Below, one piece after another: positions 22,045-40,140 of a DNA stretch of 64,000 nt (position 1 is the stretch's first letter; every line of letters begins with the position of its first letter). The notes beneath the pieces are model-generated. The model saw only the letters and a list, made by a program, of their open reading frames with translations. It searched no databases and was not told where the DNA came from. The stretch is from Vagococcus penaei (lineage in GTDB: Bacteria; Bacillota; Bacilli; Lactobacillales; Vagococcaceae). The position numbers and the translations under genes were made by a program. The stretch spans positions 1,786,001 to 1,850,000 of the forward strand of contig NZ_CP019609.1 of the NCBI RefSeq assembly GCF_001998885.1. Direction: 5' to 3'.

Positions 22045-24338
22045 ATGACGCACGAGGTATCGCTAGCTTTAGTTGGTAATCCCAATTGTGGCAAGACCAG
22101 TTTATTCAATGAATTGACTGGCTCAAATCACTCTGTTGGTAACTGGCCAGGTGTGACAGTTGAACGTAAAACGGGAATAATTAAGGGGACGGATAATATT
22201 GTCTTACAAGATTTACCAGGTATCTATTCAATGTCACCATATTCACCAGAGGAAGTCGTGGCTAGGGATTATCTCATCCAGGATATACCTGATGCTGTTT
22301 TAAATATTGTTGACGCGAGCAATTTAGAGCGTAACTTGTATTTAACGTTACAGTTACTTGAAACGGGGCATCCTGTTATTGTTGTCTTAAATATGATGGA
22401 TGTTGTGAAAAAACAAGGGACTCTACTAAATGACAATCAACTAGGCTATTTATTGGGCGTCCAAACAATTCCAATTAGTGTCACGAAAAATCAAGGATTA
22501 CAGGAATTGACGCATATAATTAGTAAACGTCGTAGTGGATTTAGTCCCATCGTTAATTATCCGACTTATGACGACCGTCTGGAAGTCGCTTTAGATGAGA
22601 TTAGTCAGTTAATCGAACCTTATGTGTCAGCTTATCAACTACGTTGGTACAGTATTAAATTATTTGAAAAAGACACACAAGTGATGGAGGTGCTTGAATT
22701 ACCCCCAGACATTCAGCAAGAAATTGCAGAAATTATTACAATTTCAGAAAAGGTATTTGATGATGATAGTGAGAGTATTATTGTCAATGCACGTTACGAA
22801 TTCATTGATGATGTGACAGCAATGTGTTTACAACATTCGCCAACTGCGACACAGACGATGAGCGATAAGATTGATCGCGTGGTAACCAATAAATGGCTAG
22901 CATTACCCATTTTTGCTATCGTTATGTGGTTTGTCTATTATCTTGCAATTCAGACAGTAGGAGCTTTGGGGACTGATTGGGTTAATGAACGACTATTCGG
23001 AGAATATATACCTCACATAACCAGTTATTGGTTAGCCACATGGCAAGTAGCCCCATGGTTACAATCCTTGATTTTAGATGGTATTTTGGCTGGTGTCGGT
23101 GCTGTGTTAGGTTTTGTCCCACAGTTAATGGTATTGTTTTTATGTTTATCTTTTTTAGAAGACTGTGGTTACATGAGTCGTATCGCATTTGTGATGGACC
23201 GTTTGTTTCGCCGATTTGGTTTATCGGGTAAATCATTTATTCCAATGCTTGTAGCAACTGGATGTGGGGTACCAGGTATTATGGCTAGTCGAACGATTGA
23301 AAATGAAAAAGACCGGCGAATGACGATTATGACAACGACATTCATGCCATGCTCTGCTAAGTTACCGATTATTGGTTTGATTTCAGGGGCTTTTTTCCAC
23401 GCAGCTCGTGGGTTGCTCCGTCTGCCTATTTTTTTGGTATTGGTGCAATTGTATTATCAGGAATTCTTTTGAAAAAAACGGCTTTATTTAGTGGTGAACC
23501 AGCGCCATTTATTATGGAGCTTCCAAATTACCATTGGCCGAGATTAAAAAATAGTTTTCGTCAAACTATCGAACGTTCAAAATCATTTGTCAAAAAGGCT
23601 GGTACGATTATTTTTGCCTGTTCAGTTTTTATTTGGTTCTTATCATCATTTAATTGGCAATTTAAAATGGTAACAACAGATCAAAGTTTACTGGCCCTTT
23701 TAGGGAAAGGATTAGCACCATTATTTGTTCCACTGGGTTGGGGAAATTGGCAAGCGACAGTAGCAACATTAACTGGATTGATTGCTAAAGAAAATGTTGT
23801 GGGTACGTTTGGTATTTTGTATGCACATTTACCTGAAATATCTGAGACAGGTAAAGAGTTCTGGCCACTATTTAGCACCAGTTTAACACCAGTCGCTGGC
23901 TACTCATTTTTACTGTTTAATTTACTCTGTGCACCGTGTTTTGCTGCTGTTGGTGCGATTAGACGTGAGATGTCAGATTGGCGTTGGACAACTTTGGCGA
24001 TTAGTTATCAATGTGGATTAGCTTATTTAGTTAGTTTTTTAGTGTATCAATTAGCGAGTGTTTTACTGGGCTATCATAGTTTTAGTTTAGGGACTGGTAT
24101 CGCTATAACTTTATTAATTGGATTGATAGGCTGGTTAATTTTGCCACAAAAAAAGCCATCAAAGATTTACCAGGGATTAAACTTTACTAGAAAAGAGGAA
24201 GAAAGTATGAGTACTATTATTATATCGGTTGTTATTTTTTCGTTAGTAATTTTAGTTGTTTATCGATACGGTATTAAAAAGAAATCAAGTTGCGACTGCT
24301 CAGTTACAGATTGTCCAATTAATAAAAAACACTTATAA
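22045..24338 (+). pseudogene. feoB: ferrous iron transporter FeoB, frameshifted
   Basis: Two reading frames (22045-23472 and one read from about 23397 to 24338) together encode a full FeoB. The N-terminal G domain has GNPNCGKTSLFNE (G1), DLPGIYSM (G3) and LNMMDV (G4). Membrane gate motifs include ATGCGVPGIMASRTIE and MPCSAKLPIIG. After GAFF the frame is lost at a run of six T (23391-23396); adding one T restores PRSSWVAPSAYFFGIGA, as in the family. The restored protein would be about 764 residues because the frame continues without a stop through a Cys-rich tail (MSTIIISVVIFSL... ending CDCSVTDCPINKKHL). The indel may be a sequencing error, in which case the gene is functional. Confidence 0.85.
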
Positions 24339-27849: not shown

Positions 27850-27878
27850 TTGTAAACGTTTTTTTAGTGTGATATCAT
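27850..27878 (+). promoter_or_regulatory. promoter of the glycan-utilisation locus with cre-like site
   Basis: TTGTAA at 27850-27855 and TATCAT at 27873-27878 are separated by 17 bp. TGTAAACGTTTTTT at 27851-27864 overlaps the -35 and matches 12 of 14 positions of the catabolite-responsive element consensus, so CcpA repression is plausible. Confidence 0.6.
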
Positions 27879-27887
27879 TTGTTTGTC

Positions 27888-27897
27888 GAAACGTTTC
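27888..27897 (+). promoter_or_regulatory. LacI-type operator
   Basis: GAAACGTTTC, a perfect 10-bp palindrome with the central CG typical of LacI-family operators, lies just downstream of the -10. The LacI-family gene at 39177 closes the locus and is the obvious candidate to bind it. The pairing is inferred. Confidence 0.6.
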
Positions 27898-27925
27898 ACC
27901 GGTAAAATGAAAGGAGGGCTTTACT

Positions 27926-28843
27926 TTGATTAAGTCAAAGATAGATCGTTTTTTATCACAATGGCAACTGCAATGGATGATTATTCCTGGAATTGCATTC
28001 ATGATTGTTTTTAATTATATTCCGATATACGGTATTATCATTGCTTTTAAAAATTATACAGTTGTCGATAGTATTTCTTCAGCTGATTGGGTTGGTCTAG
28101 AAAACTTTAGAATTATTTTTGAAGACACATTTTTTTGGGAAGCTGTAAGAAATACTTTAGCAATTAGTTTATTAAAATTAGCGCTTGGGTTCTTTTTACC
28201 GATTATTTTAGCAGTTATGATTTTTGAGATGAAAGATGGTCGTTTAAAAAAGACAATTCAAACCATTTCTTACATTCCTCACTTTTTCTCTTGGATTGTT
28301 TTAGGAGGAATGTTAATTAGTTGGCTATCAACATCAGGCTTTATTAATCAAATTTTAATGTCTGTTGGTCTGATGGATAATGGAGTCAATTATCTATTGG
28401 AAGCGGATAAATATTGGTGGATAGCAGTCTTCTCAGATTTGTGGAAAGAGGTCGGTTGGGGAACCATTTTGTATCTAGCCGGAATGTCTAAGATTGATGC
28501 TAGTTATTATGAAGCAGCACGTATGGATGGTGCAACTAAATTAACACAAATTAGAAAAATTACCATACCATTACTAACACCAATTATTTCATTAAATTTA
28601 ATTTTAGCTGTTAGTGGTATTTTAGGGTCGAATTTAGATCAAACGTTAGTCTTAATGAATGCGCAAAACCAAAATCGTTCCGAAGTAATCAACTCATTTG
28701 TGTATAAGATGGGGATTACACAAGGAGATTTCTCTTACGCAACAGCCGTTGGTCTAGGTGTATCAGTTATTTCAATCATTTTAGTTTTAGTGACAAATAA
28801 AATTACGAAGAAAATGAATAATGGACAATCTGTAATCTTTTAA
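27926..28843 (+). CDS. carbohydrate ABC transporter permease (LplB type)
   Basis: A 305-residue inner permease subunit with six membrane segments. It starts with QWMIIPGIAFMIVFNYIPIYG, and the ATPase-contacting EAA loop is YEAARMDGATKLTQIRKI, around residues 192-209. This family (LplB/YtcP-type, CUT1) imports oligosaccharides with a lipoprotein binding protein. The start TTG at 27926 or the nearby in-frame region follows AAAGGAGGG; TTG gives the family's N-terminus. It is the first gene of the long operon; 13 bp separate it from the second permease. Confidence 0.88.
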   Translation: MIKSKIDRFLSQWQLQWMIIPGIAFMIVFNYIPIYGIIIAFKNYTVVDSISSADWVGLENFRIIFEDTFFWEAVRNTLAISLLKLALGFFLPIILAVMIFEMKDGRLKKTIQTISYIPHFFSWIVLGGMLISWLSTSGFINQILMSVGLMDNGVNYLLEADKYWWIAVFSDLWKEVGWGTILYLAGMSKIDASYYEAARMDGATKLTQIRKITIPLLTPIISLNLILAVSGILGSNLDQTLVLMNAQNQNRSEVINSFVYKMGITQGDFSYATAVGLGVSVISIILVLVTNKITKKMNNGQSVIF

Positions 28844-28861
28844 ATAATGGAGGTGAATGTC

Positions 28862-29738
28862 TATGCATAAAAGAAAAAATGAAAATCGCGTATTCAGTAT
28901 TATCAACACAGTTTTACTCGTCACATTTGCGTTAATTATTGTTGTCCCAATTTGGAATATTCTTGTTTCCTCTGTCAGTGGCGATTCTGGATTAGGTAGT
29001 TCTGGATTAGTATTAATACCGAAAAACTTTACGTTAGAGAATTATCGGAAGGTTTTAGCAGATGATAGTATCCCAAGAGCATTAATGATTTCCGTTTTGA
29101 AAACAGTTATCGGAGCATTTACTCATGTCGCATTTTGTGCGATGGTAGCCTATGCTTTGAGTAAGCGTCACCTTGCTGGTCGGAGTATCTATGCAACTAT
29201 GGGTGTCATTACAATGTATTTTAGTGGTGGGATGATTCCAACTTACTTACTGATTCGATCACTGGGCTTATTAGATTCTTTCTGGGTATATATTATTCCG
29301 GCCCTGTTTAGTTATTATGATGTTATTATCTTAATGAATTTCTTCCGTGATGTGCCAGTATCACTTGAAGAATCTGCAAAAATTGATGGTGCTTCAGAAT
29401 TTATGATTTTTAGAAAGATATATTTACCTTTATCCAAACCAGCATTGGCAACAATTTTATTATTTAATGGCGTGAGTCAGTGGAATGACTTTATGACTAC
29501 GAAATTATATATTACGAATGAAAAATTGTATCCGCTTCAAATGAAAATATATGAAATTGTCGTTCAATCAAATATGAGCGCCATGAATAGCGGAAGTACC
29601 GATGTTGTGTTTGAAGCCACAACGCGTGGTGTACAGTTGGCAACAATTGTGATTACTACATTGCCAATTTTGATTATTTATCCATTGTTACAGAAACATT
29701 TTATTGGTGGCATGATGGCGGGAGCCGTAAAAGAATAA
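28862..29738 (+). CDS. carbohydrate ABC transporter permease (LplC/YtcP type)
   Basis: A 291-residue second permease subunit, partner of the preceding gene. It has six membrane segments, the EAA loop ESAKIDGASEFMIFRKI, and the family C-terminus KHFIGGMMAGAVKE. The ATG at 28863 after TGGAGGTGAATGTCT is the best start; an earlier in-frame GTG at 28857 is less likely. No ATP-binding subunit is encoded in the locus, so the importer probably borrows a shared MsmK-type ATPase encoded elsewhere. Confidence 0.87.
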
Positions 29739-29763
29739 TATAAAAAGAAAGGTGATTAATAAT

Positions 29764-31370
29764 ATGAAAAAGATCGTTTTAGGTTTGTTAACTGCATCAC
29801 TCGCAGTTACTTTAGCTGCATGTGGAGGAAAAGAAAAAAAGAGGAAGCAAAAGATTTTAGTATTAAAGATCGTTATGAATTAGACGCTAAAACACCTGCT
29901 TGGAAATTAGATAAGAAAAAAGAAATGACCGAAATTACATGGTATATCAATGCAGATTGGACAACAATTCCATTTGGAACAGATGCAACCACAAAGAAAA
30001 TCAAAGAGGATTTGAATATTGATGTTAAGTTTGTATCAGGAGACGATGCTAAATTGAATGCTTTGATTTCTAGTGGTGATTTACCGGACATCGTAACTTT
30101 AATGGATAAAGCAAGTCCAGCAGCTTTAAAAGCTGATACTTGGGCACTTCCATTGAATGATTTAGGAAAAAATTATGATCCATATTTACTTGAAACAGTG
30201 AATCAAGATACATTTAATTGGTTCTCATTAGATAATGGTAAAACGTATGGTTACCCTAACTACTCAAATACTGCTGAAGATTATGAAAATAACGTTGTCC
30301 CAATCAATGATGCATTTGTTATTCGTGAAGATGTGTATGAAAAATTAGGTAAACCTTCAGTTGCGACACCAAAAGAGTTTGTTAAAGTAATGAGTGATAT
30401 CAAAAAAGAATTTCCAGATATGGTACCTTTTGGATTTACACCAATAGGTGAAGATGGTGGACCTTTCGCTTCTGTTTTACAAGATTTCTTAGGAGTTCCT
30501 TTAGAAACAGAATCTGGATCATACAATGATCGTAACTTAGATCCAGAATACAAAGAATGGTTACAAGCAATTAATACTGTTTATCAAGATGGCAATATTA
30601 CAGATGATAGTTTTACCGATGATGGCCCAACATTTGATGAAAAAATTAAAAAAGGTAATTATGCAGTTGTCTTTTCACGTGGTATCAGTGGTTTAGTTGG
30701 TCAATTCCAAGAATTTGAAAATAAAGGTCAATCGAAATATATCGCAATTGACGGCCCAGCTAGTACGTCTGGACGTAGTATTGGTTTGAATCAAACTGGT
30801 TTATCTGGTTGGTTAATTAACTATGTAACAAAAAATGCTAAAGATCCTGCTAAAGTGACACAATTATTTACTTATTTAATTAGTGAAGAAGGTCAAATTT
30901 TAACTAAATTTGGTATTGAAGGGGAAACATTTAAGTATAATGACGATAAACTAATCGAAATTTTACCAGAAGTAAAAGAATTAGAAAAAAATGATCCTGA
31001 AAAATATCGTACAACATATGGTTTAAGTGCATTTAATTACTTTAACCATGATCGTATGAACAAATTAAAAGTCCCTGAAACTATCTCAATTAGTCAAATG
31101 CAAGAGTGGGGTAAAGGTAAATTGAAGCCACACTTTATCGTTGAAAAAGTTTCTCCAGATGCAGGAACTAAAGAAGCACGTTCTGAAAAAGCGATGGAAA
31201 CAAAATTCAATACAACAGTTATTTCACTCGTTCGTGCAAAATCATCTGATGATTTTGAAAAAGTATACCAAGAATTCGTTGATTTCAATAAGAAAAATGA
31301 TAGTGAGAATGTGTATAAAGCAAAAACTGAAAAAATGAATGAGAATAAAAAGAAATTAAAACTTGACTAG
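29764..31370 (+). pseudogene. extracellular solute-binding lipoprotein, frameshifted after the lipobox
   Basis: The ATG at 29764 (AAAGGTG upstream) encodes a lipoprotein signal MKKIVLGLLTASLAVTLAAC with lipobox LAAC, but that frame stops after 39 codons. The main frame (from about 29835 to 31370) starts in the middle of the charged linker and encodes the whole mature domain, about 510 residues. Adding one A to the run of seven A at 29834-29840 joins the two into a normal binding protein of about 535 residues. The mature part (EITWYINADW, ISSGDLPDIVTL) is a typical family 1 sugar-binding protein for LplB/LplC permeases. As written the protein cannot be exported; a sequencing error is likely. 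Confidence 0.85.
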
Positions 31371-31393
31371 ATTAAATACTGATAGAAAGGAGA

Positions 31394-31426
31394 ATGGAAA
31401 ATAATTTTCCAAACACAAACCTATGA
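31394..31426 (+). other. possible 10-codon leader frame
   Basis: ATG at 31394 opens a frame of ten codons (MENNFPNTNL) whose TGA overlaps the next gene's ATG as ATGA. Inside it GGAAAATAATTTTCC (31396-31410) is a perfect palindrome. AAAGGAG lies only 1-2 nt before this ATG but about 30 nt before the DUF624 start, an unusual arrangement. It may be coincidental. Confidence 0.3.
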
Positions 31427-31995
31427 GAAAAGTTTTTGCCATTGATGGCTGGTACTTTAGAATTTTTTCTAAATTAGCTAATTTGATGATATTGAATCTA
31501 CTTTTTATCCTTTCGGTTATCCCAATAGTGACAGCAGGTATTGGACTAATGAGTTTAATTAAGACGGTTCAAGAGTTACGTCAAGATGAAATGTTGTCGG
31601 TTGTAACGGTATATGCACGTAACTTTAAGCAAAATATTATGCGGGGATTGATTTTACTGGGTGTTGAAGTGATTGGATTAGCGATACCTATGAGCATTAT
31701 TTATCTAAGTTTAATGTACTTACCGTTTTTAGCAACTTTACTTATGATTGTGTTCTCCTTTGTTTTACTGATTTTGAGTAGTTTTCCATTGATTTATTCA
31801 TTGGAAAACCAAGCCTTAATACCAGCGTTATACCAAACAATTGGTTTTGTGACAACAAAGATAGCTCTCGCAATTGCTATCTTTATTGTTCCATTAGTAG
31901 TTGGTTATCTGAGTTTTAAAGTGTCATTGATTTTTCTATTTTTTATGGGAATCTCACTAATCGTTTATGCGCAGTTAAGCTTAATGAGGAGGTAG
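31423..31995 (+). CDS. DUF624 (YesL-like) membrane protein
   Basis: A 190-residue membrane protein with about five hydrophobic segments. It begins MRKVFAIDGWYF and contains the YesL-family stretch LANLMILNLLFILSVIPIV. YesL/DUF624 proteins occur almost always beside sugar ABC importers of this type; their role in import is not established. The start codon has no ribosome-binding site at normal distance (the nearest AGGAG is about 30 nt upstream), so translation may depend on coupling to the short frame before it. Confidence 0.8.
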   Translation: MRKVFAIDGWYFRIFSKLANLMILNLLFILSVIPIVTAGIGLMSLIKTVQELRQDEMLSVVTVYARNFKQNIMRGLILLGVEVIGLAIPMSIIYLSLMYLPFLATLLMIVFSFVLLILSSFPLIYSLENQALIPALYQTIGFVTTKIALAIAIFIVPLVVGYLSFKVSLIFLFFMGISLIVYAQLSLMRR

Positions 31996-32002
31996 CGACT
32001 GA

Positions 32003-32932
32003 ATGACACAGTTGTATGACTATTGGCAACAACAGTTACAGATTTCAAAACGTTTGCCTTTAGAAATCACATTAGTTGAGCAAACAAGTTTATCTGATGA
32101 GAGACTAACTACGTATCAAGTGACCTATACTAGTCTTGGACAAGTAAAAATTACTGGTTGGCTGATAATACCAGCCAATCAAGAAACGTATCCACTAGTA
32201 ATTGACTATTTGGGTTATATGACACAGTTACAAAATCCAATGGAGTATCAGTCGTGGATAGACCTAGGCATTGGCGTATTAGCAATTGATATGCGAGGGC
32301 AAGGTGGTATGACACCTGATATCATGGCTTATGTTACAACACAAGAAAGACAATTACTCGCTAGAGGATGCACGACACCAGATGATTTTTATCTTCGGCG
32401 TCTGTATTGGGATGCTTTACGTTTAGTTGATGTGGCGTTTAGTTTGCCACAAGTCGATCAACAAGCTGTTTTTATTCATGGAACGAGTCAGGGTGGTGGG
32501 TTAGCTGTTTTCGTAGCGAGTCTAACCCCACATCCAATTCGTTATACTTTTGCGAATGTACCAAGTCATTCTAATATAGAAAATCGAGTGGTAACAGGAA
32601 CGGGTTCGTATCGAGAAATTAAGCAATTTATTGAAAAGAATCCAATGCTTTTGAACAACGTCTTGGAAACACTCAACTACTTTGATACACAGTTTGTGGC
32701 TCAATATTTAACAACACCAATTCTAGTTTCTGTTGGAGTGGCTGACCCAATTTGTCCAAAAGAAGATTTTTATCCGACCTATGGTGCAATCACAGCTCCG
32801 AAAGAACTAATTTGTTATCCAGAAACTGGTCATGGTGGTGGAGGTCAAATTCATTTAACAAAAATTTTAATGATGTGTGAAAGGATACTAGGAGGTGACT
32901 TACATGACGGAACTGAGAATAGCAACGTATAA
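32003..32932 (+). CDS. acetyl-xylan-esterase family alpha/beta hydrolase
   Basis: A 309-residue cytoplasmic serine esterase of the AXE1/cephalosporin-C deacetylase family (CE7-like). The triad can be placed as S162 in HGTSQGGG, D248 in GVADPICP and H277 in TGHGGG; RGQGG upstream is also family-typical. No signal peptide is present, so it would act on imported sugars, removing acetyl or similar acyl groups. It is embedded between the transporter genes and the glycosidases, and its 3' end overlaps the next gene by 29 bp. Substrate assignment is inferred from the family. Confidence 0.82.
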   Translation: MTQLYDYWQQQLQISKRLPLEITLVEQTSLSDERLTTYQVTYTSLGQVKITGWLIIPANQETYPLVIDYLGYMTQLQNPMEYQSWIDLGIGVLAIDMRGQGGMTPDIMAYVTTQERQLLARGCTTPDDFYLRRLYWDALRLVDVAFSLPQVDQQAVFIHGTSQGGGLAVFVASLTPHPIRYTFANVPSHSNIENRVVTGTGSYREIKQFIEKNPMLLNNVLETLNYFDTQFVAQYLTTPILVSVGVADPICPKEDFYPTYGAITAPKELICYPETGHGGGGQIHLTKILMMCERILGGDLHDGTENSNV

Positions 32933-33671
32933 TGTTCGGGTTGATACTGAAGAAGATGGTAGATGGTCATGGAATTATCGCCAACCATATGTTAGTGATG
33001 TCCTTAACTATTACCAATGGGATATCCTAGGATTACAAGAACTATTACCAAATCAATACCAAGATAGCCAACTTGCTAATTATCATGCGATTTATGCTGA
33101 ACGAGATGGTGATGGTTTAGGTGAAGGTTTGGCTATTTATTATCAGCAAGCTATTTTTGAACAGATTGAAACTGGTCATTTTTGGTTATCTGATACACCG
33201 GACAGACCATCGATTCACCCAGAGGCGGGCTGTCGACGCCTAGCAGTTTGGGGGCTATTATATCACCGTGAGAGTCAGAAAACTTTTCTGGTCATTAACA
33301 CACACTTAGACCATGTGTCATCAACTGCTCGAAAAGCTGGAGTTTCTGTCTTGTTAACACAATTAGCAAAAAAAATTGACAAGTATCCGACCATTTTATT
33401 AGGTGACTTTAATGGAGAACTTGATGAGGCATTACATGATGAGTTAAAAAAACGTTTCACTTATCCTCCAGAAGTAGGAGACCAAAGACGTTACGGACCA
33501 AAAGGAACATTCCAGGGATTTAATTATGAGATAGCCTGGCAGGAGTTAGAACAAATTGATTTTATTTTATTAAAAAACATTGATTGTCTAACATATGCAA
33601 CATTGACTGATTCGTGTGATCGACGTTTTCCGTCGGATCATTTTCCAGTAGTAGCAAAAATTAAATTATAA
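32904..33671 (+). CDS. endonuclease/exonuclease/phosphatase-family hydrolase
   Basis: A 255-residue metal-dependent phosphohydrolase fold. Active-site motifs in order are RIATYNVR, LGLQEL (metal-binding Glu), THLDHVS (His), LLGDFNG (Asp/Asn) and the final SDHFPV (Asp-His). There is no signal peptide. This superfamily includes nucleases, sphingomyelinases and sugar-phosphate or phosphodiester hydrolases; a place inside a glycan operon argues for a sugar-linked phospho substituent rather than DNA. I start it at the ATG at 32904 because AGGAGGTGACTT lies just upstream; an in-frame GTG is at 32895. Confidence 0.78.
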   Translation: MTELRIATYNVRVDTEEDGRWSWNYRQPYVSDVLNYYQWDILGLQELLPNQYQDSQLANYHAIYAERDGDGLGEGLAIYYQQAIFEQIETGHFWLSDTPDRPSIHPEAGCRRLAVWGLLYHRESQKTFLVINTHLDHVSSTARKAGVSVLLTQLAKKIDKYPTILLGDFNGELDEALHDELKKRFTYPPEVGDQRRYGPKGTFQGFNYEIAWQELEQIDFILLKNIDCLTYATLTDSCDRRFPSDHFPVVAKIKL

Positions 33672-33692
33672 AGTTTAGGGGAGACGACTATA

Positions 33693-35843
33693 ATGAAACA
33701 AGAAAATTTACAGGCAATTTTAGCTAAAATGACACCAAAAGAAAAAGTAGATCAATTATTACAATTGTCTGCTGATTTCTATACAGATGATGCCGAGGAT
33801 CGTACTGGTCCAATGGAGAACTTAGACATTACAGAACAAACAATTAAAAATGCTGGGACTATTTTAGGGGTGTCCGGTGCCCAAAAAACGATTGATATTC
33901 AAAAGGAATATATTGAAAATAATCCACACCATATTCCAACTTTGTTTATGGCTGATATTATTCATGGTTTCCGGACAATTTTTCCAATTCCTTTAGCACT
34001 TGGTTGTACATGGGATATAGCGGCAGTGAATGAAATGGCTTCTATATCAGCAGTTGAATCAGCTGTCTCTGGATTACATTTAACCTTTTCACCAATGCTT
34101 GATTTAGTACGTGATCCACGCTGGGGACGTGTCTTAGAATCAACTGGTGAAGACCCTTATTTAAATAGTGAGTATGCAAAAGCAATGGTTCAAGGTTATC
34201 AAGGTGATGATTTAATTGCTGATACACAAAAAGTAGCTGCTTGTGTGAAGCACTTTGCGGCTTATGGTGGTGCTATTGGTGGACGTGATTATAATACAGT
34301 TGACGTTTCAGAAACAACTTTACGAGAAAAATACTTGCCAAGTTATCAAGCAGCGATTGATGCTGGAGCAAAAATAGTTATGACGGCATTTAATACTGTT
34401 GAGGGTGTTCCTGCAACTGGTAATAAAAAATTATTCCGTCAAATTTTACGTGATGAGTTTAAATTTACAGGGCCAGTAATTTCTGACTGGGGTGCTATCT
34501 ATGAGCTGGTTAATCACGGAGTAGCTCCAGATGAAAAAGAGGCGGCTCGTTTGGCAATCGAAGCTGGAGTAGATATCGAAATGATGACTACTTGTTATGA
34601 CAAACATTTGTTGACATTAATTGAAGAAGATTCACACTATATGGAGTTATTAGATGAAGCCGTTCTTAGAATTTTAGAGTTAAAAAATGATTTAGGTCTT
34701 TTTGAAAATCCACACCGTGGGGCAAATGTTGAAGACGAAAAACGATTAATTTTATCAGATGAGCACCGTGAATCAGCCCAGAAAATTGCTGAAAAATCAA
34801 TTGTATTGTTAGAGAATAAAAACGCTTTACCTGTTGATAAATCAACAAAAGTAGCTTTGATTGGTCCTAAGGCGAAAACAGGTGATTTGATGGGTGCATG
34901 GTCTTGGCAAGGTAAACAAGATGAGGTCGTAACAATTGCGCAGGGTTTGTTAGCTAAAAGTAATCAAGTTACTGTTTCAACAGGTGATTATGATTTGTTT
35001 GATAATAGTCCTGAAAGTATAGAAGATGCATTAATGCTTGCTAAAGCAAATGATGTAGTCGTTTTAGCACTTGGTGAAGCTGATTGGATGAGCGGAGAGG
35101 CAGCTAGTCGTAGTGATATTAAATTACCAGCAAGTCAAATTGCTTTATATAAAGCTGTTAAAGATGTGGCGAAGCAAGTTGTCGTAGTGATTATCAGTGG
35201 TCGACCATTAGACTTAACGGATATTGCTGATGCTGATGCTATTTTACAAGCTTGGTTCCCTGGAACAGAAGGTGGATCAGCAATTGCAAATGTCTTATAT
35301 GGTGACGTTAACCCAAGTGGGCGCCTAAGTATGTCCTTCCCGCATTCTGTCGGTCAAGTTCCTGTTTATTACAATACGGAAAATACGGGACGTCCTTATG
35401 AATTAAATCCAACTGAAAAATATGTATCGAAATATTTAGATGTGTCAAACTATGCAAAATATCCATTTGGTTTTGGCTTGAGTTATAGCAACGTTACTTA
35501 TGACGCACTAGAGTTATCTCACCAAACACTTAAAGCAGACGATACATTAGAAGTAACTGTGACTGTGACTAACCATTCTGAACGCCCAGTTATTGAGACT
35601 GTTCAATTATATGTTCGCGACTTAGTTGGTATCACATCACGACCATTAAAAGAATTAAAAGGTTTCGCACAAGTTGAGTTAGTTGGTGGTGAAACAAAAT
35701 CAGTGACAATAGCATTACCAATCAGTCAATTATCTTATGTACATCCTGATTTAACATGGGGCATTGAAGCTGGTGAATGCCATGTGATGGTTGGGCCGAA
35801 TAGTCGTGATTTAATCTTAACGGAAGCATTCTTTATTGAGTAA
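33693..35843 (+). CDS. glycoside hydrolase family 3 beta-glucosidase
   Basis: A 716-residue cytoplasmic GH3 enzyme. The (beta/alpha)8 domain has the nucleophile D265 in PVISDWGA and the substrate-binding VKHFAAYGG; the alpha/beta sandwich domain follows (VALIGPKAKTGDLMG), then a fibronectin-III-like C-terminal domain (from about residue 600). It has no signal peptide. It would release glucose from short beta-linked oligosaccharides. The neighbouring GH94 phosphorylase suggests beta-1,2 linkages, as in the Listeria sophoro-oligosaccharide locus where a GH3 enzyme accompanies the phosphorylase. The ATG at 33693 has GGGGAG upstream. Confidence 0.88.
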   Translation: MKQENLQAILAKMTPKEKVDQLLQLSADFYTDDAEDRTGPMENLDITEQTIKNAGTILGVSGAQKTIDIQKEYIENNPHHIPTLFMADIIHGFRTIFPIPLALGCTWDIAAVNEMASISAVESAVSGLHLTFSPMLDLVRDPRWGRVLESTGEDPYLNSEYAKAMVQGYQGDDLIADTQKVAACVKHFAAYGGAIGGRDYNTVDVSETTLREKYLPSYQAAIDAGAKIVMTAFNTVEGVPATGNKKLFRQILRDEFKFTGPVISDWGAIYELVNHGVAPDEKEAARLAIEAGVDIEMMTTCYDKHLLTLIEEDSHYMELLDEAVLRILELKNDLGLFENPHRGANVEDEKRLILSDEHRESAQKIAEKSIVLLENKNALPVDKSTKVALIGPKAKTGDLMGAWSWQGKQDEVVTIAQGLLAKSNQVTVSTGDYDLFDNSPESIEDALMLAKANDVVVLALGEADWMSGEAASRSDIKLPASQIALYKAVKDVAKQVVVVIISGRPLDLTDIADADAILQAWFPGTEGGSAIANVLYGDVNPSGRLSMSFPHSVGQVPVYYNTENTGRPYELNPTEKYVSKYLDVSNYAKYPFGFGLSYSNVTYDALELSHQTLKADDTLEVTVTVTNHSERPVIETVQLYVRDLVGITSRPLKELKGFAQVELVGGETKSVTIALPISQLSYVHPDLTWGIEAGECHVMVGPNSRDLILTEAFFIE

Positions 35844-35855
35844 CGGAGGGTGAGC

Positions 35856-38800
35856 ATGAAGACAATTAATTATACAGGTAAAAATGTAACCATCTCTTTT
35901 TTACCATATGGAGATATTAAAGAAATTTTAGCCGAACCGATTTTAATCAATCAATATATTGGAACGGAAATAGATGGTAGTATAAATAATCTTTATTTAC
36001 GTGTCTATCAAGATGATTCATTTAAAACATATCCATTACTTGGTAAAAATTCAACTAGTACGTGTGAGTTTTATGAATCAAAAGTCTGTTGGTCAGGACA
36101 AATTGACGATATTTTTTATCAAGTGACTTTTCGTTTATCAGAACACGATAATTGGTTCTTTACGATTGATTTAATGGGAACTGATAAACAAGTGGATGTA
36201 ATCTATGGACAAGATTTAGGCTTAGCAGCTAAATCAATTGTTTTAACCAATGAAGCCTATAATTCACAATACATTGACCACTCTGTTTATCAGACAGAAA
36301 CTGGCTACACTGTTTGTTCAAGACAAAATATGGAACAAGAAGCTGGCTGTTTTCCAATGGTACAGCAAGGTAGTCTAACGAAAACAATTGGTTTTGTAAC
36401 GGATGGTTATCAATTTTTTGGACGTGAATATCGTGAGGACGGACGTCTTCAAATAGAAAAAGAAAGTAATCTACCTAATGTAGTTTATCAATACGAGATG
36501 GCTTATATTGGCCTACAATCAACCAAACTAAGCTTGTCCGAAGATAGCCAGTCAGTTATATTCTATGGAAGTTATATCACTAATCATCCAGAAGCAGTAA
36601 CGGATCCTATCAAGACTGAAAGAGAACTGATGCAAGATTTTGAACATGTCATGTTATCATCAGCCGGTACAACTCAAACTTTAAGTCGACCCGGTTCAAC
36701 ACATATTGAATTATTATCAGGTCGAGAATTAACGGATAGTGAGATAGAAACCTTATTTCCAAAGCGTAAATTAGAAGAAATTAAAGCAGGTAAGCTATTA
36801 TCTTTCTTTGATGCTCAAGATTATCACATCGTTTTAAAGGCGAAAGAAATCTTGATGGAACGTTCTCATGGTCACATTATTTTGAGTGGAGAAGAAGAAA
36901 CGATTGACCGTCCTGTTCTTGCATCGACAGTTTACATGAATGGTCTATTTAATGCACAAATTGTCTATGGCAATACGACAATGAATAAATTTATTAGTAA
37001 TAGTCGCAATCCATTAAATTGTTTGAAAAAATCGGGTCAACGGTTGTATATTAAGCGTCATAATGAGTGGCAACTATTAGGTATGCCTTCTGCTTTTAAA
37101 ATGGGATTCAATTTTGCGACTTGGTATTACCAATTATCAGATGATTTAATCAGTGTAACTAGTTATACGACACCTAATTCGCGAATGCTCAAATTTACTG
37201 TGACAAGTCATAATAAAGTGCACTATGATTGGGTAACAACCTTTGATGTTGTAATGAATGATATCGAGCACACTGATAGTGTCAAAATGATGAAAAATGG
37301 TCCATTGATTAGTTTTGAGCCGACTGAACAGGCTGCTAGTTACAATAAATATCCTGGATTAAGATATGACATTAAATTAAAAACACCGTTTTATTTAGTT
37401 TCAATGGAAGATTTTTTTGGTGTGACAGATACGGATAATTTGATTGGCCTCGGTTTTACTGAGACAGATACAGTCGAGTTAACGATTAATGGGACGCTTT
37501 CTGCTGAACCGTTTGAAGAAGATCATGTGTCATTAAGTGAGGCAAGTCAGTCATATGATACTTATATTGCCAATTTATCGAATCATTTTCATTTAGAGCA
37601 TATCAATCAAGCTAAAGTGGATAAAGTGAATAGTTTGGTTAAGTGGTACACCCATAATATGTTAGTTCATTATTTATCACCTCATGGCTTAGAGCAATAT
37701 GGTGGTGCTGCTTGGGGGACTAGAGATGTGTGTCAAGGGCCGGTTGAGTATTTCTTTGCAATGGAAAAACCGGAAGTCGTACGCTCAATTTTATTAACGC
37801 TATATGCGCATCAATTTGAAGATGATGGTAATTGGCCACAGTGGTTTATGTTTGATCGTTATGAAGAAATCAAAGCAGCTGAGAGTCATGGAGATATTAT
37901 TGTCTGGCCATTAAAAGTTATTAGTGACTATTTACATATGACGAAAGACTACAGTGTTTTAGAGGAATTACTACCCTATGCAAATCGACAAACGGGGAAA
38001 CAAAGCGCTGAAAAAGAAAGTTTACTAGAACATATTGAAAAACAAATTAGTTATCTAACAAGCCATTTCTTACCGGGAACTTATTTATCTAGTTATGGTG
38101 ATGGCGATTGGGACGACACGTTACAACCTGCTGACCAAACGTTGAAGAAAAATATGGCAAGTAGCTGGACAGTTGCTTTAACCTATCAAACATTACGGAA
38201 TTTTTCACAGATTATGGTTGACTATGCTCAAGATATTTCTCAGCGTATGAATGAAATAGCTCAAGGAATCAAACATGATTTTCATCAATACATGATTCAG
38301 GATGGCGTTATTTCAGGATTTATTTTAGATAATGGTAATCAAACATACGAAGCAATTGTTCATCCTAACGATCAGCGAACAGGTATCAACTATCGTTTAT
38401 TACCGATGACACGAAGTATGATTGCAGAATTGATTAGCCCAGAAGAAGTTGTTAAACATTATGATTTAATTCAGACACATTTAACGTTTCCAGATGCAAC
38501 ACGTTTAATGGATCAACCAGCACATTATGCAGGTGGTGTTAGTCGTAATTTTAAACGAGCTGAACAAGCAGCGAATCTTGGTCGTGAAGTAGGTCTAGCT
38601 TATATTCATGCGCATATTCGTTACGTTGAGGCTATGGCTAAAATTGGTAAGACAGAAGAAACTTGGTCAAACTTAGAGAAGATTAATCCAATCGGCTTGA
38701 CTGAATTAATTGAACATGCAAGTTTAAGACAAGCGAATGCGTATTTTAGTAGTTCAGATGGTGCGTTTAATACACGTTATGATGCTCAAAATCAATTTAA

Positions 38801-39176
38801 TCAATTAAAAACAGGTGAAATCGAAGTCAAAGGTGGTTGGCGTATTTACTCTAGTGGCCCAGGTATTTATTTACACCAACTAATAAGTCAAGTTTTAGGA
38901 ATCCGTGAGGACTATGAGTCAATGATTTTTGATCCAGTGCTACCTTCAGAACTGGATGGATTATTATTAACGTATCAATTGGGTAAGCGGAAATTAAATA
39001 TTCGTTATCATTTAACTAATACTGTCCATAAACTATTAATTAATGGTAAACTGGTAGAAACAAAACATAACAGTAATCAGTATCGTCAGGCCGGTTTAGT
39101 TGTATCAAAAGAACAGTTTAATCAATGGACAAAAGAAGGAGAAAACGAAATCGAAATATTTATTGGAGAGATGTAA
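35856..39176 (+). CDS. GH94 phosphorylase, probably 1,2-beta-oligoglucan phosphorylase
   Basis: An 1106-residue enzyme with a long beta-sandwich N-terminal half and an (alpha/alpha)6 barrel from about residue 590 (LVKWYTHNMLVHYLSPHGLEQ, in the barrel's first helix pair). The barrel contains YGDGDWDDTLQP, residues 747-757, where one of D749-D754 should be the general acid, and the late ISQVLGIREDYESMIFDP. Length and motifs match the GH94 1,2-beta-oligoglucan phosphorylase group (known from Listeria innocua), which converts sophoro-oligosaccharides plus phosphate to glucose 1-phosphate. There is no signal peptide. The ATG at 35856 follows GGAGGGTGAGC; an upstream GTG at 35850 is less likely. 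The exact linkage specificity is an inference. Confidence 0.82.
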   Translation: MKTINYTGKNVTISFLPYGDIKEILAEPILINQYIGTEIDGSINNLYLRVYQDDSFKTYPLLGKNSTSTCEFYESKVCWSGQIDDIFYQVTFRLSEHDNWFFTIDLMGTDKQVDVIYGQDLGLAAKSIVLTNEAYNSQYIDHSVYQTETGYTVCSRQNMEQEAGCFPMVQQGSLTKTIGFVTDGYQFFGREYREDGRLQIEKESNLPNVVYQYEMAYIGLQSTKLSLSEDSQSVIFYGSYITNHPEAVTDPIKTERELMQDFEHVMLSSAGTTQTLSRPGSTHIELLSGRELTDSEIETLFPKRKLEEIKAGKLLSFFDAQDYHIVLKAKEILMERSHGHIILSGEEETIDRPVLASTVYMNGLFNAQIVYGNTTMNKFISNSRNPLNCLKKSGQRLYIKRHNEWQLLGMPSAFKMGFNFATWYYQLSDDLISVTSYTTPNSRMLKFTVTSHNKVHYDWVTTFDVVMNDIEHTDSVKMMKNGPLISFEPTEQAASYNKYPGLRYDIKLKTPFYLVSMEDFFGVTDTDNLIGLGFTETDTVELTINGTLSAEPFEEDHVSLSEASQSYDTYIANLSNHFHLEHINQAKVDKVNSLVKWYTHNMLVHYLSPHGLEQYGGAAWGTRDVCQGPVEYFFAMEKPEVVRSILLTLYAHQFEDDGNWPQWFMFDRYEEIKAAESHGDIIVWPLKVISDYLHMTKDYSVLEELLPYANRQTGKQSAEKESLLEHIEKQISYLTSHFLPGTYLSSYGDGDWDDTLQPADQTLKKNMASSWTVALTYQTLRNFSQIMVDYAQDISQRMNEIAQGIKHDFHQYMIQDGVISGFILDNGNQTYEAIVHPNDQRTGINYRLLPMTRSMIAELISPEEVVKHYDLIQTHLTFPDATRLMDQPAHYAGGVSRNFKRAEQAANLGREVGLAYIHAHIRYVEAMAKIGKTEETWSNLEKINPIGLTELIEHASLRQANAYFSSSDGAFNTRYDAQNQFNQLKTGEIEVKGGWRIYSSGPGIYLHQLISQVLGIREDYESMIFDPVLPSELDGLLLTYQLGKRKLNIRYHLTNTVHKLLINGKLVETKHNSNQYRQAGLVVSKEQFNQWTKEGENEIEIFIGEM

Positions 39177-40139
39177 ATGGTTGGTATCAGAGATATTGCA
39201 AAAGAGGCAGGGGTATCAATTTCAACGGTGTCTTATGCATTAAATGGAAGTGATAAGGTAACGGAAGAAACACGACAGCGAATTGAAAAAATTGCAAAAG
39301 AGATGAACTATGTACCAAATATGGCTGCCAAAGCTTTAAAACGCCGTGAAACGAAAATTATTGGTGTTTATCTAGCTGATTACTCTGGTAGTTTTTATGG
39401 TGAATTATTAGATGGTATTAAGTACGGTTTAGAATCGTATGACTATGAGATGATTGTTTGTAGTGGTAAACGGTCACATTTATTTATTCCTGAACGAATG
39501 GTAGATGGTGTGATTATTCTAGATTGGACATTTGATACAGCTGAGATTGAGAAATACGGTAAAGCAGGTTACAAGTTAGTGACGCTTGACCGTGAAGTAT
39601 CAGGTGATAATTTAGGTCATGTGCTACTGGATAATATGGGGGGAGCGACTTTAGCTATTGAAAAACTTGTCGAAAAACCAGCTAAAGCAACCTACTTAGT
39701 AACGGGACCTGAGAATTCTTATGATAGTCGTAAGCGCTTAGAAGCTGCTGAAAAAGAACTAGTTCGCTATGGTATTGACTATCAGATTTATATTGGTGAT
39801 TTTAATGCTCAATCGGGCAATCGGATTGCTGAAAAAATTTATCGAACGACGGAAGTATATCCTATTTCAATTTTTTCCTTCAATGATGAGATGGTTATTG
39901 GAATGTATGACTTTTTTAAAGGGACAGATTTAGTTATTGGTCGTGACGTCAATATCATTGGATTTGATAATGCTGATTACAGTACTATTGTATCACCAAC
40001 AATTGCGACCATTGGATTTTCAAAAAAACGTTGGGGTATGTTAAGCGTTGAAAAACTAATGCAACTAATTAATGGTGAAAGTATCACAAATAGTCTCATC
40101 TATACGAGTTATATCAGCGGAGAATCTTTTCCAGAATAA
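39177..40139 (+). CDS. LacI family transcriptional regulator
   Basis: A 320-residue repressor. The N-terminal helix-turn-helix is IRDIAKEAGVSISTVSYALN, followed by the hinge helix NMAAKALKRRETKIIGV, then a periplasmic-binding-protein-like sensor domain. Its ATG directly follows the stop codon of the GH94 gene with GGAGAG upstream, so it is the last gene of the operon and is autoregulated if it binds the GAAACGTTTC operator at 27888. The ligand is probably a product or intermediate of the imported glycan. Confidence 0.9.
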   Translation: MVGIRDIAKEAGVSISTVSYALNGSDKVTEETRQRIEKIAKEMNYVPNMAAKALKRRETKIIGVYLADYSGSFYGELLDGIKYGLESYDYEMIVCSGKRSHLFIPERMVDGVIILDWTFDTAEIEKYGKAGYKLVTLDREVSGDNLGHVLLDNMGGATLAIEKLVEKPAKATYLVTGPENSYDSRKRLEAAEKELVRYGIDYQIYIGDFNAQSGNRIAEKIYRTTEVYPISIFSFNDEMVIGMYDFFKGTDLVIGRDVNIIGFDNADYSTIVSPTIATIGFSKKRWGMLSVEKLMQLINGESITNSLIYTSYISGESFPE

Positions 40140-40140
40140 A

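What the first reader, a model, noticed from the sequence alone, without database searches (positions are those of the whole stretch)
27850..40140. Putative system for importing and dismantling substituted beta-1,2-glucans
The permease pair, binding protein, GH3 enzyme and GH94 1,2-beta-oligoglucan-phosphorylase-type enzyme parallel the Listeria sophoro-oligosaccharide locus. Here two further intracellular enzymes sit in the middle of the operon: an acetyl-xylan-esterase-family hydrolase and an endonuclease/exonuclease/phosphatase-fold hydrolase. Natural beta-1,2-glucans (osmoregulated periplasmic and cyclic glucans of Proteobacteria) carry acetyl or succinyl and phosphoglycerol-type substituents. 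The two enzymes could remove these after import so that the phosphorylase and glucosidase can finish the chain. That would make it a decorated-glucan scavenging system.
Basis: inference. Interest (0 to 1): 0.65.

Follow-up and report, generated by a model that had tools for sequence, protein, structure and literature searches.

The report
Importer and dismantler of decorated glucans
This nine-gene Vagococcus operon very probably imports beta-1,2-linked glucose chains made by other bacteria and, before breaking them down, trims off chemical decorations with two extra enzymes; the gene set recurs as a swappable module in many relatives, but what the two trimming enzymes act on has not been tested.

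Summary

The substituted-glucan reading gains real support. EEP and SOGP co-occur in 29 of 32 EEP-bearing genomes (SOGP background 78/295), and EEP lies beside SOGP in several different arrangements. Esterases of two unrelated Pfam families (AXE1 or PF00756) recur at SOGP loci, almost never together. One correction: the transporter is not the Listeria type but alginate-importer-like (AlgM1/AlgQ2). Across 95 SOGP loci, transporter, AXE and EEP behave like a module: EEP in 17 of 19 alginate-type loci, 4 of 76 others.

The catalytic activities are not shown. The nearest characterised EEP relative is a sugar-6-phosphatase, so phosphomonoester removal rivals phosphoglycerol removal. No GH144-type (PF10091) glucanase is found in the genome, so linear rather than cyclic glucans are likelier. 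PDB 3l1w, "functionally unknown", is 98-99% identical to EEPs in such operons, so the idea is directly testable.

The parts
27850..27878 (+). promoter-like site TTGTAA-17-TATCAT with TG before the second hexamer
   Evidence: consensus only; the same block is kept upstream of four Vagococcus relatives
27887..27898 (+). presumed LacI operator CGAAACGTTTCA just downstream of the -10
   Evidence: one exact match in the whole 2.37-Mb genome, control 0; identical in four Vagococcus relatives
27926..28843 (+). ABC permease 1, AlgM1-like
   Evidence: Pfam BPD_transp_1; best PDB sequence match AlgM1, E=1.6e-54
28857..29738 (+). ABC permease 2
   Evidence: Pfam BPD_transp_1
29764..31370 (+). large solute-binding lipoprotein; frameshift in a 7-A run at 29,834-29,840 separates signal peptide/lipobox from the mature part (ORF 29,820-31,370)
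   Evidence: profile matches 9pmy, 5gub/5xs8 and AlgQ2
31423..31995 (+). YesL/MusI-type membrane protein, presumed transporter accessory
   Evidence: NCBIfam MusI_fam E=2.9e-11, below its curated cut-off; kept in nearly all alginate-type loci
32003..32932 (+). AXE1-family (CE7-like) carbohydrate esterase, no signal peptide
   Evidence: Pfam AXE1 E=1e-55; PDB cephalosporin-C deacetylase / acetyl xylan esterase E=7.5e-43; Ser-Asp-His and RGQ/GxSQG conserved, HE motif reads HG
32904..33671 (+). EEP-fold phosphohydrolase (GTG start at 32,895 also possible), overlaps AXE, no signal peptide
   Evidence: Pfam Exo_endo_phos; 3l1w E=3e-82, 4c1r mannosyl-6-phosphatase E=6e-28; catalytic residues invariant in 26 relatives
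33693..35843 (+). GH3 beta-glucosidase, Lin1840-like
   Evidence: best PDB match Lin1840 E=3.4e-208; NCBIfam BglX above cut-off
35850..39176 (+). [quoted passage not shown]
   Evidence: Pfam SOGP_N, SOGP_2nd, SOGP_4th, Glyco_hydro_94; LpSOGP 5h3z E=2e-272
39177..40139 (+). LacI-family regulator, last gene of the operon
   Evidence: Pfam LacI and Peripla_BP; kept with SOGP in most loci

Best explanation
The operon takes up short linear beta-1,2-glucans that still carry substituents, most likely enterobacterial osmoregulated periplasmic glucans or fragments of them. The alginate-type ABC importer, energised by a shared MsmX-type ATPase encoded elsewhere, brings them in. In the cytoplasm the AXE1-family esterase removes acyl esters and the EEP protein removes phosphate-linked groups (phosphoglycerol, phosphoethanolamine or bare phosphate). 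The cleared chain is then shortened by SOGP to glucose 1-phosphate plus sophorose, and GH3 splits sophorose to glucose. LacI represses the operon from one operator. Shown by sequence: gene content, operon layout, SOGP and GH3 identity, transporter kinship, conserved catalytic residues, co-occurrence. Inferred: that the ligand is decorated, the chemistry of both trimming steps, and their order.
For: SOGP residues described for LpSOGP (Y141, R630, D631, W758, D760, R907, E917, Y922, H924, and the Gly/Ala of subsite +2; PMC5309861) are all present in the aligned window protein. GH3 is closest to Lin1840. EEP and SOGP co-occur in 29 of 32 EEP genomes against 78 of 295 overall, Fisher p=5e-16 (not corrected for kinship), and 13 of 20 against 50 of 398 in the class. 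EEP lies next to SOGP in different arrangements and transporter contexts, and on the EEP tree the linkage needs about five changes, at least three on well-supported branches. SOGP loci carry an AXE1 esterase in 18 of 19 alginate-type loci, or a different PF00756 esterase in 23 of 76 others, with one locus holding both. EEP is in 17 of 19 alginate-type loci and 4 of 76 others. PermA is closest to AlgM1 and the SBP profile hits AlgQ2 and 5gub. No MalK-type ATPase in the operon but one elsewhere in the genome. No PF10091 glucanase in the genome.
Against: No activity has been measured. AXE1-family enzymes are known mainly for deacetylation, whereas E. coli glucans carry succinyl. The closest characterised EEP relative is a phosphomonoesterase by name. 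Two alginate-type loci lack EEP beside SOGP (L081 and L141, EEP elsewhere in both genomes) and one of them also lacks AXE. EEP paralogues exist away from SOGP, some in genomes without SOGP. Independent-pair tests on the SOGP tree point the right way but are too few to be significant. The binding protein is frameshifted in this assembly.
Confidence: 0.6

Rival explanations
1. Same system, but the EEP protein is a sugar-6-phosphatase: it removes phosphomonoesters from imported oligosaccharides (or clears accumulating sugar phosphates) rather than phosphoglycerol diesters.
For: The nearest characterised relative is Bt3783 mannosyl-6-phosphatase (4c1r): profile E=5e-66, Z 33 against at most 27 for the nucleases and sphingomyelinases. 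The R, E, WLSxTPxxPS and second R positions invariant or nearly so in the family are shared with 4c1r.
Against: The cassette clade replaces the aromatic or His residue after the shared Glu by Gly, which may make room for a larger substituent. I recall no beta-1,2-glucan with phosphomonoesters; the known ones carry phosphodiesters.
Confidence: 0.3
2. An ordinary bare sophoro-oligosaccharide system; AXE and EEP are passengers carried along with the transporter module.
For: The Listeria loci work without AXE1, and the three genes travel together, so linkage between AXE, EEP and transporter could be inherited rather than functional.
Against: EEP is also linked to SOGP without this transporter (L119, L133, L134, L061, L157) and esterases of two unrelated Pfam families recur at SOGP loci. 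V. fluvialis has a second EEP in front of the same operon. Passengers should not recur in this way.
Confidence: 0.12
3. The imported compound is not a bacterial glucan but another acylated and phosphorylated sophorose-containing glycoside, for example an acetylated sophorolipid headgroup or a plant sophoroside.
For: GH3 and an acetyl-type esterase would suit acetylated sophorose; AXE1-family enzymes are known deacetylases.
Against: SOGP needs three or more residues; sophorolipids and sophorosides are disaccharides without phosphate; an alginate-type importer suits longer chains.
Confidence: 0.08
4. EEP acts on nucleic acids or lipids and has no link to the sugar pathway.
For: The fold superfamily contains DNase I, TDP2 and sphingomyelinases.
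Against: Closest kin is a sugar phosphatase; strong SOGP linkage; no signal peptide; nucleases match only weakly.
Confidence: 0.04

Closest known systems
Listeria innocua sophoro-oligosaccharide cluster (Lin1838-1843: LacI, SOGP Lin1839, GH3 Lin1840, SBP Lin1841, permeases)
   Same: SOGP, GH3 and LacI orthologues; cytoplasmic phosphorolysis of chains of 3 or more plus hydrolysis of sophorose (PMC3960220, PMC4757417)
   Different: transporter of another kind (MalFG-like permeases with an SBP_bac_1 binding protein); no AXE1 esterase, EEP or YesL between transporter and GH3. Some Listeria relatives carry a PF00756 esterase plus EEP next door (L133, L134)
Ignavibacterium album beta-1,2-glucanase cluster (IALB_1185 region)
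   Same: SOGP homologue, GH3 and ABC transporter for beta-1,2-glucans (PMC8861115)
   Different: has GH144 endo-glucanases and a GH35 transferase; the terms phosphatase, esterase and exonuclease do not occur in the paper text
Sphingomonas alginate importer AlgM1M2/AlgQ2 and the Smon0123-type importer
   Same: first permease and binding protein belong to this kind
   Different: alginate or glycosaminoglycan ligands there; here the partners are beta-1,2-glucan enzymes
Bt3783 mannosyl-6-phosphatase (PDB 4c1r) and PDB 3l1w
   Same: same EEP subfamily; 3l1w is 98-99% identical to EEPs encoded inside SOGP operons
   Different: Bt3783 is a Bacteroides enzyme for yeast mannan (from memory); 3l1w has no assigned function

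Membership tests
[quoted passage not shown]
   SOGP_N, SOGP_2nd, Glyco_hydro_94 and SOGP_4th all above cut-off
[quoted passage not shown]
   read off the alignment to 5h3z (chain index = paper number + 1) against the residues in PMC5309861; S1005 was beyond the printed alignment
[quoted passage not shown]
   needs enzyme assay
Lin1840-type GH3 beta-glucosidase | closest sequence relative among solved GH3 enzymes is Lin1840 | tested here: met
   E=3.4e-208, next best 3.7e-178
AXE1 / carbohydrate esterase family 7 | Pfam AXE1 over cut-off; Ser-Asp-His, RGQ and GxSQG motifs | tested here: met
AXE1 / carbohydrate esterase family 7 | HE motif (signature recalled from memory) | tested here: not met
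   HG in the window and most relatives; the catalytic His itself is kept. Filed as AXE1-family, CE7-like, not as a strict CE7 member
EEP (Exo_endo_phos) superfamily | catalytic N, E, H, D-x-N and S-D-H residues | tested here: met
   N13, E49, H137, D171, N173, D222, D248, H249 invariant in 26 sequences
Mannosyl-6-phosphatase (Bt3783) | activity on mannose 6-phosphate | not testable with these tools
   only kinship shown
Listeria-type SOGP cluster | SBP_bac_1-type binding protein and MalFG-like permeases (Lin1841-1843) | tested here: not met
   no Pfam SBP match for the window SBP; PermA nearest AlgM1; Listeria-locus SBP is SBP_bac_1/8
AlgM1M2/AlgQ2-type importer | sequence kinship of permease 1 and binding protein | tested here: met
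AlgM1M2/AlgQ2-type importer | uptake of long anionic saccharides | not testable with these tools
   needs transport or binding assay

The most novel reading that the evidence does not exclude
The alginate-type importer, AXE1 esterase and EEP hydrolase form a swappable module that turns a plain sophoro-oligosaccharide operon into a scavenger of native, substituted periplasmic glucans, and the EEP proteins (including the unassigned structure 3l1w) are the first recognised enzymes that strip phosphoglycerol or phosphoethanolamine from such glucans.
Probability: 0.33. Interest if true: 0.65.

Novelty: new variant of a known kind. Interest (0 to 1): 0.52.

Why it matters
The breakdown of beta-1,2-glucans has been studied almost only with bare chains, although native glucans of Gram-negative bacteria are acylated and carry phosphoglycerol or phosphoethanolamine. 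How those decorations are removed by consumers is, as far as the papers searched show, not described. This locus names candidate enzymes for both decorations, ties a 15-year-old structure of unknown function (3l1w, Enterococcus faecalis V583) to a pathway, and suggests that Enterococcus and Vagococcus, which share habitats with Enterobacteria, feed on their neighbours' periplasmic glucans.

Tried and rejected
Papers: searches for a glucan phosphoglycerol phosphodiesterase, for an esterase or EEP in an SOGP cluster, and for 3L1W/4C1R/Bt3783 found nothing relevant; the Nature 2015 yeast-mannan paper and the 2018 Lin1841 paper are not held. Extracellular endo-glucanase: PF10091 absent from the genome; other beta-1,2-glucanase families (GH162, GH186, GH189 and newer) were not tested. 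Independent-pair tests of transporter against EEP on the SOGP tree had only about four supported pairs and could not reach significance. Structure of the EEP (AlphaFold, pLDDT 88) confirmed the fold and nearest relatives but cannot tell diesterase from monoesterase. Nuclease and sphingomyelinase were considered as functions and rejected as less close. A link to the bacterium's own teichoic acids was considered: enterococcal glycolipids carry alpha-1,2 (kojibiose), not beta-1,2 (from memory), so SOGP would not fit.

Full report
What is there. Nine genes on the + strand from 27,926 to 40,139 form one operon with gaps of 0-52 bp and an AXE/EEP overlap: two ABC permeases, a large binding lipoprotein, a YesL/MusI-type membrane protein, an AXE1-family esterase, an EEP-fold protein, a GH3, an SOGP-type GH94 and a LacI regulator. 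The genome is a 2.37-Mb single contig of the genus Vagococcus, judged by kinship to V. fluvialis loci. A promoter-like site at 27,850-27,878 is followed by CGAAACGTTTCA at 27,887-27,898. That 12-mer occurs once in the whole genome, and the block is kept in four relatives, so LacI probably controls only this operon. None of the four enzymes starts with a signal peptide by eye.

The backbone is beta-1,2-glucan. The SOGP carries all four SOGP/GH94 domains and matches LpSOGP (5h3z) over its full length. The residues that define LpSOGP specificity (PMC5309861) are present in the aligned window sequence: Y141, R630, D631, W758, D760, R907, E917, Y922, H924 and the GGAA stretch at subsite +2. The GH3 is closest to Lin1840, the sophorose-splitting GH3 of Listeria (PMC4757417).

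The transporter is not the Listeria one. PermA matches AlgM1 of the alginate importer at 1.6e-54, against 8e-14 for the next sugar permease. The binding-protein profile reaches 9pmy, 5gub/5xs8 and AlgQ2. Listeria-type loci carry SBP_bac_1/8 binding proteins instead. The operon has no ATPase; one MalK/MsmX-type ATPase is encoded elsewhere in the genome, the usual Firmicutes arrangement.

The esterase and EEP belong to the system. In 295 genomes of the order, 32 have the EEP, 78 have SOGP and 29 have both (Fisher p=5e-16, not corrected for kinship). In 398 genomes of the class the figures are 20, 50 and 13. In 17 of the 32 order genomes the two genes lie within about 12 kb. Arrangements differ: the full cassette in Vagococcus and Enterococcaceae; GH3-SOGP-permeases-SBP with LacI, AXE and EEP downstream (L130, L131); GH3-SOGP-permeases-SBP-YesL-AXE-EEP-LacI (L122); a Listeria-type transporter with GH35, GH13 and EEP (L119); a Listeria relative with a PF00756 esterase plus EEP beside the SOGP operon (L133, L134); SOGP-GH35-sulfatase-EEP in Halobacillus (L061); PF00756 esterase-SOGP-GH35-EEP-sulfatase (L157); and L158. 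In Alkalibacterium the EEP sits beside a PF10091 (GH144-type) protein (L129), whose homologues also occur near SOGP in eight Bacillaceae loci. On an EEP tree the SOGP-linked state needs about five changes, at least three forced by well-supported branches. V. fluvialis has a second EEP immediately in front of the operon.

Esterases of two unrelated Pfam families serve SOGP loci. AXE1 is in 18 of 19 alginate-type loci and in none of 76 others. A PF00756 esterase is in 23 of those 76 and in one alginate-type locus. Replacement of one esterase family by another is what one expects if ester removal is needed. EEP is in 17 of 19 alginate-type loci and 4 of 76 others (p=4e-13, not corrected for kinship). 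On the SOGP tree the alginate-type state changes six times, at least four on supported branches, so transporter, AXE and EEP look like a module that moves on and off a constant SOGP-GH3-LacI backbone. The formal independent-pair test has too few pairs to be significant.

What the EEP does is open. Its catalytic residues are invariant in 26 relatives. The nearest structures are 3l1w (48% identity, Z 37.6; 'functionally unknown conserved protein from Enterococcus faecalis V583') and Bt3783 mannosyl-6-phosphatase 4c1r (Z 33.0), ahead of nocturnin, TDP2 and sphingomyelinases (Z 27 and below). Two Enterococcaceae genomes encode proteins 98-99% identical to 3l1w, and in both the gene sits between AXE and GH3 in the SOGP operon (L117, L118). 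So the structure of a member of this operon is already solved. The cassette clade has Gly after the shared Glu (E77) where the other EEPs mostly have Tyr or Phe and 4c1r has His. This might widen the pocket for a diester, but EEPs linked to SOGP in other arrangements (L130, L131, L133, L134) keep the aromatic residue, so it is only a lead.

Which glucan. E. coli glucans are linear, 6-12 glucoses, carrying phosphoglycerol, phosphoethanolamine and succinyl (PMC3818809). Alpha-1,6-cyclised glucans carry succinyl or acetyl (PMC11842490). Without a PF10091 endo-glucanase, cyclic chains could not obviously be opened, so I favour linear glucans or pre-cut fragments. The chain length and charge of such molecules also suit an alginate-type importer; this is inference.

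Caveats. The binding-protein gene is one A short in a 7-A run (29,834-29,840) and so out of frame. FeoB in the same window is likewise split (22,045-23,472 and 23,469-24,338). Both look like homopolymer errors or recent mutations. All co-occurrence figures depend on sampled genomes and sequence thresholds. No biochemical activity was or could be tested.

Noticed in passing
window 29,764-29,860: Binding-protein gene frameshifted: signal peptide/lipobox and mature part in different frames, one A short in a 7-A run; the relatives checked are in frame. Assembly error, mutation or slippage site.
   Followed up: partly
window 22,045-24,338: FeoB-like gene also split into two overlapping ORFs (475 and 289 aa), a second apparent frameshift in the same window.
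   Followed up: no
L002 960-1,742: V. fluvialis carries a second EEP gene (53% identical to the window EEP) directly in front of PermA, so two EEPs belong to one locus.
   Followed up: partly
L124 8,590-9,372 and L125 8,459-9,235: In two Vagococcaceae genomes whose SOGP operon lacks EEP, an EEP paralogue lies beside a dlt-like set (DltD, MBOAT, AMP-binding enzyme).
   Followed up: no
L061 15,941-20,492 and L157 12,407-16,200: Two Bacillales SOGP loci contain a sulfatase-family protein with a formylglycine-generating partner next to EEP, hinting at yet another kind of substituent.
   Followed up: no
L119 5,831-9,998: An SOGP locus with GH35 and a GH13 alpha-amylase-family enzyme; the latter could open alpha-1,6-cyclised beta-1,2-glucans. 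Similar GH13 genes lie near SOGP in at least a dozen other loci.
   Followed up: no
PDB 3l1w (L117 9,218-10,054; L118 7,926-8,762): A solved structure of unknown function from E. faecalis V583 is 98-99% identical to EEPs encoded inside SOGP operons.
   Followed up: yes
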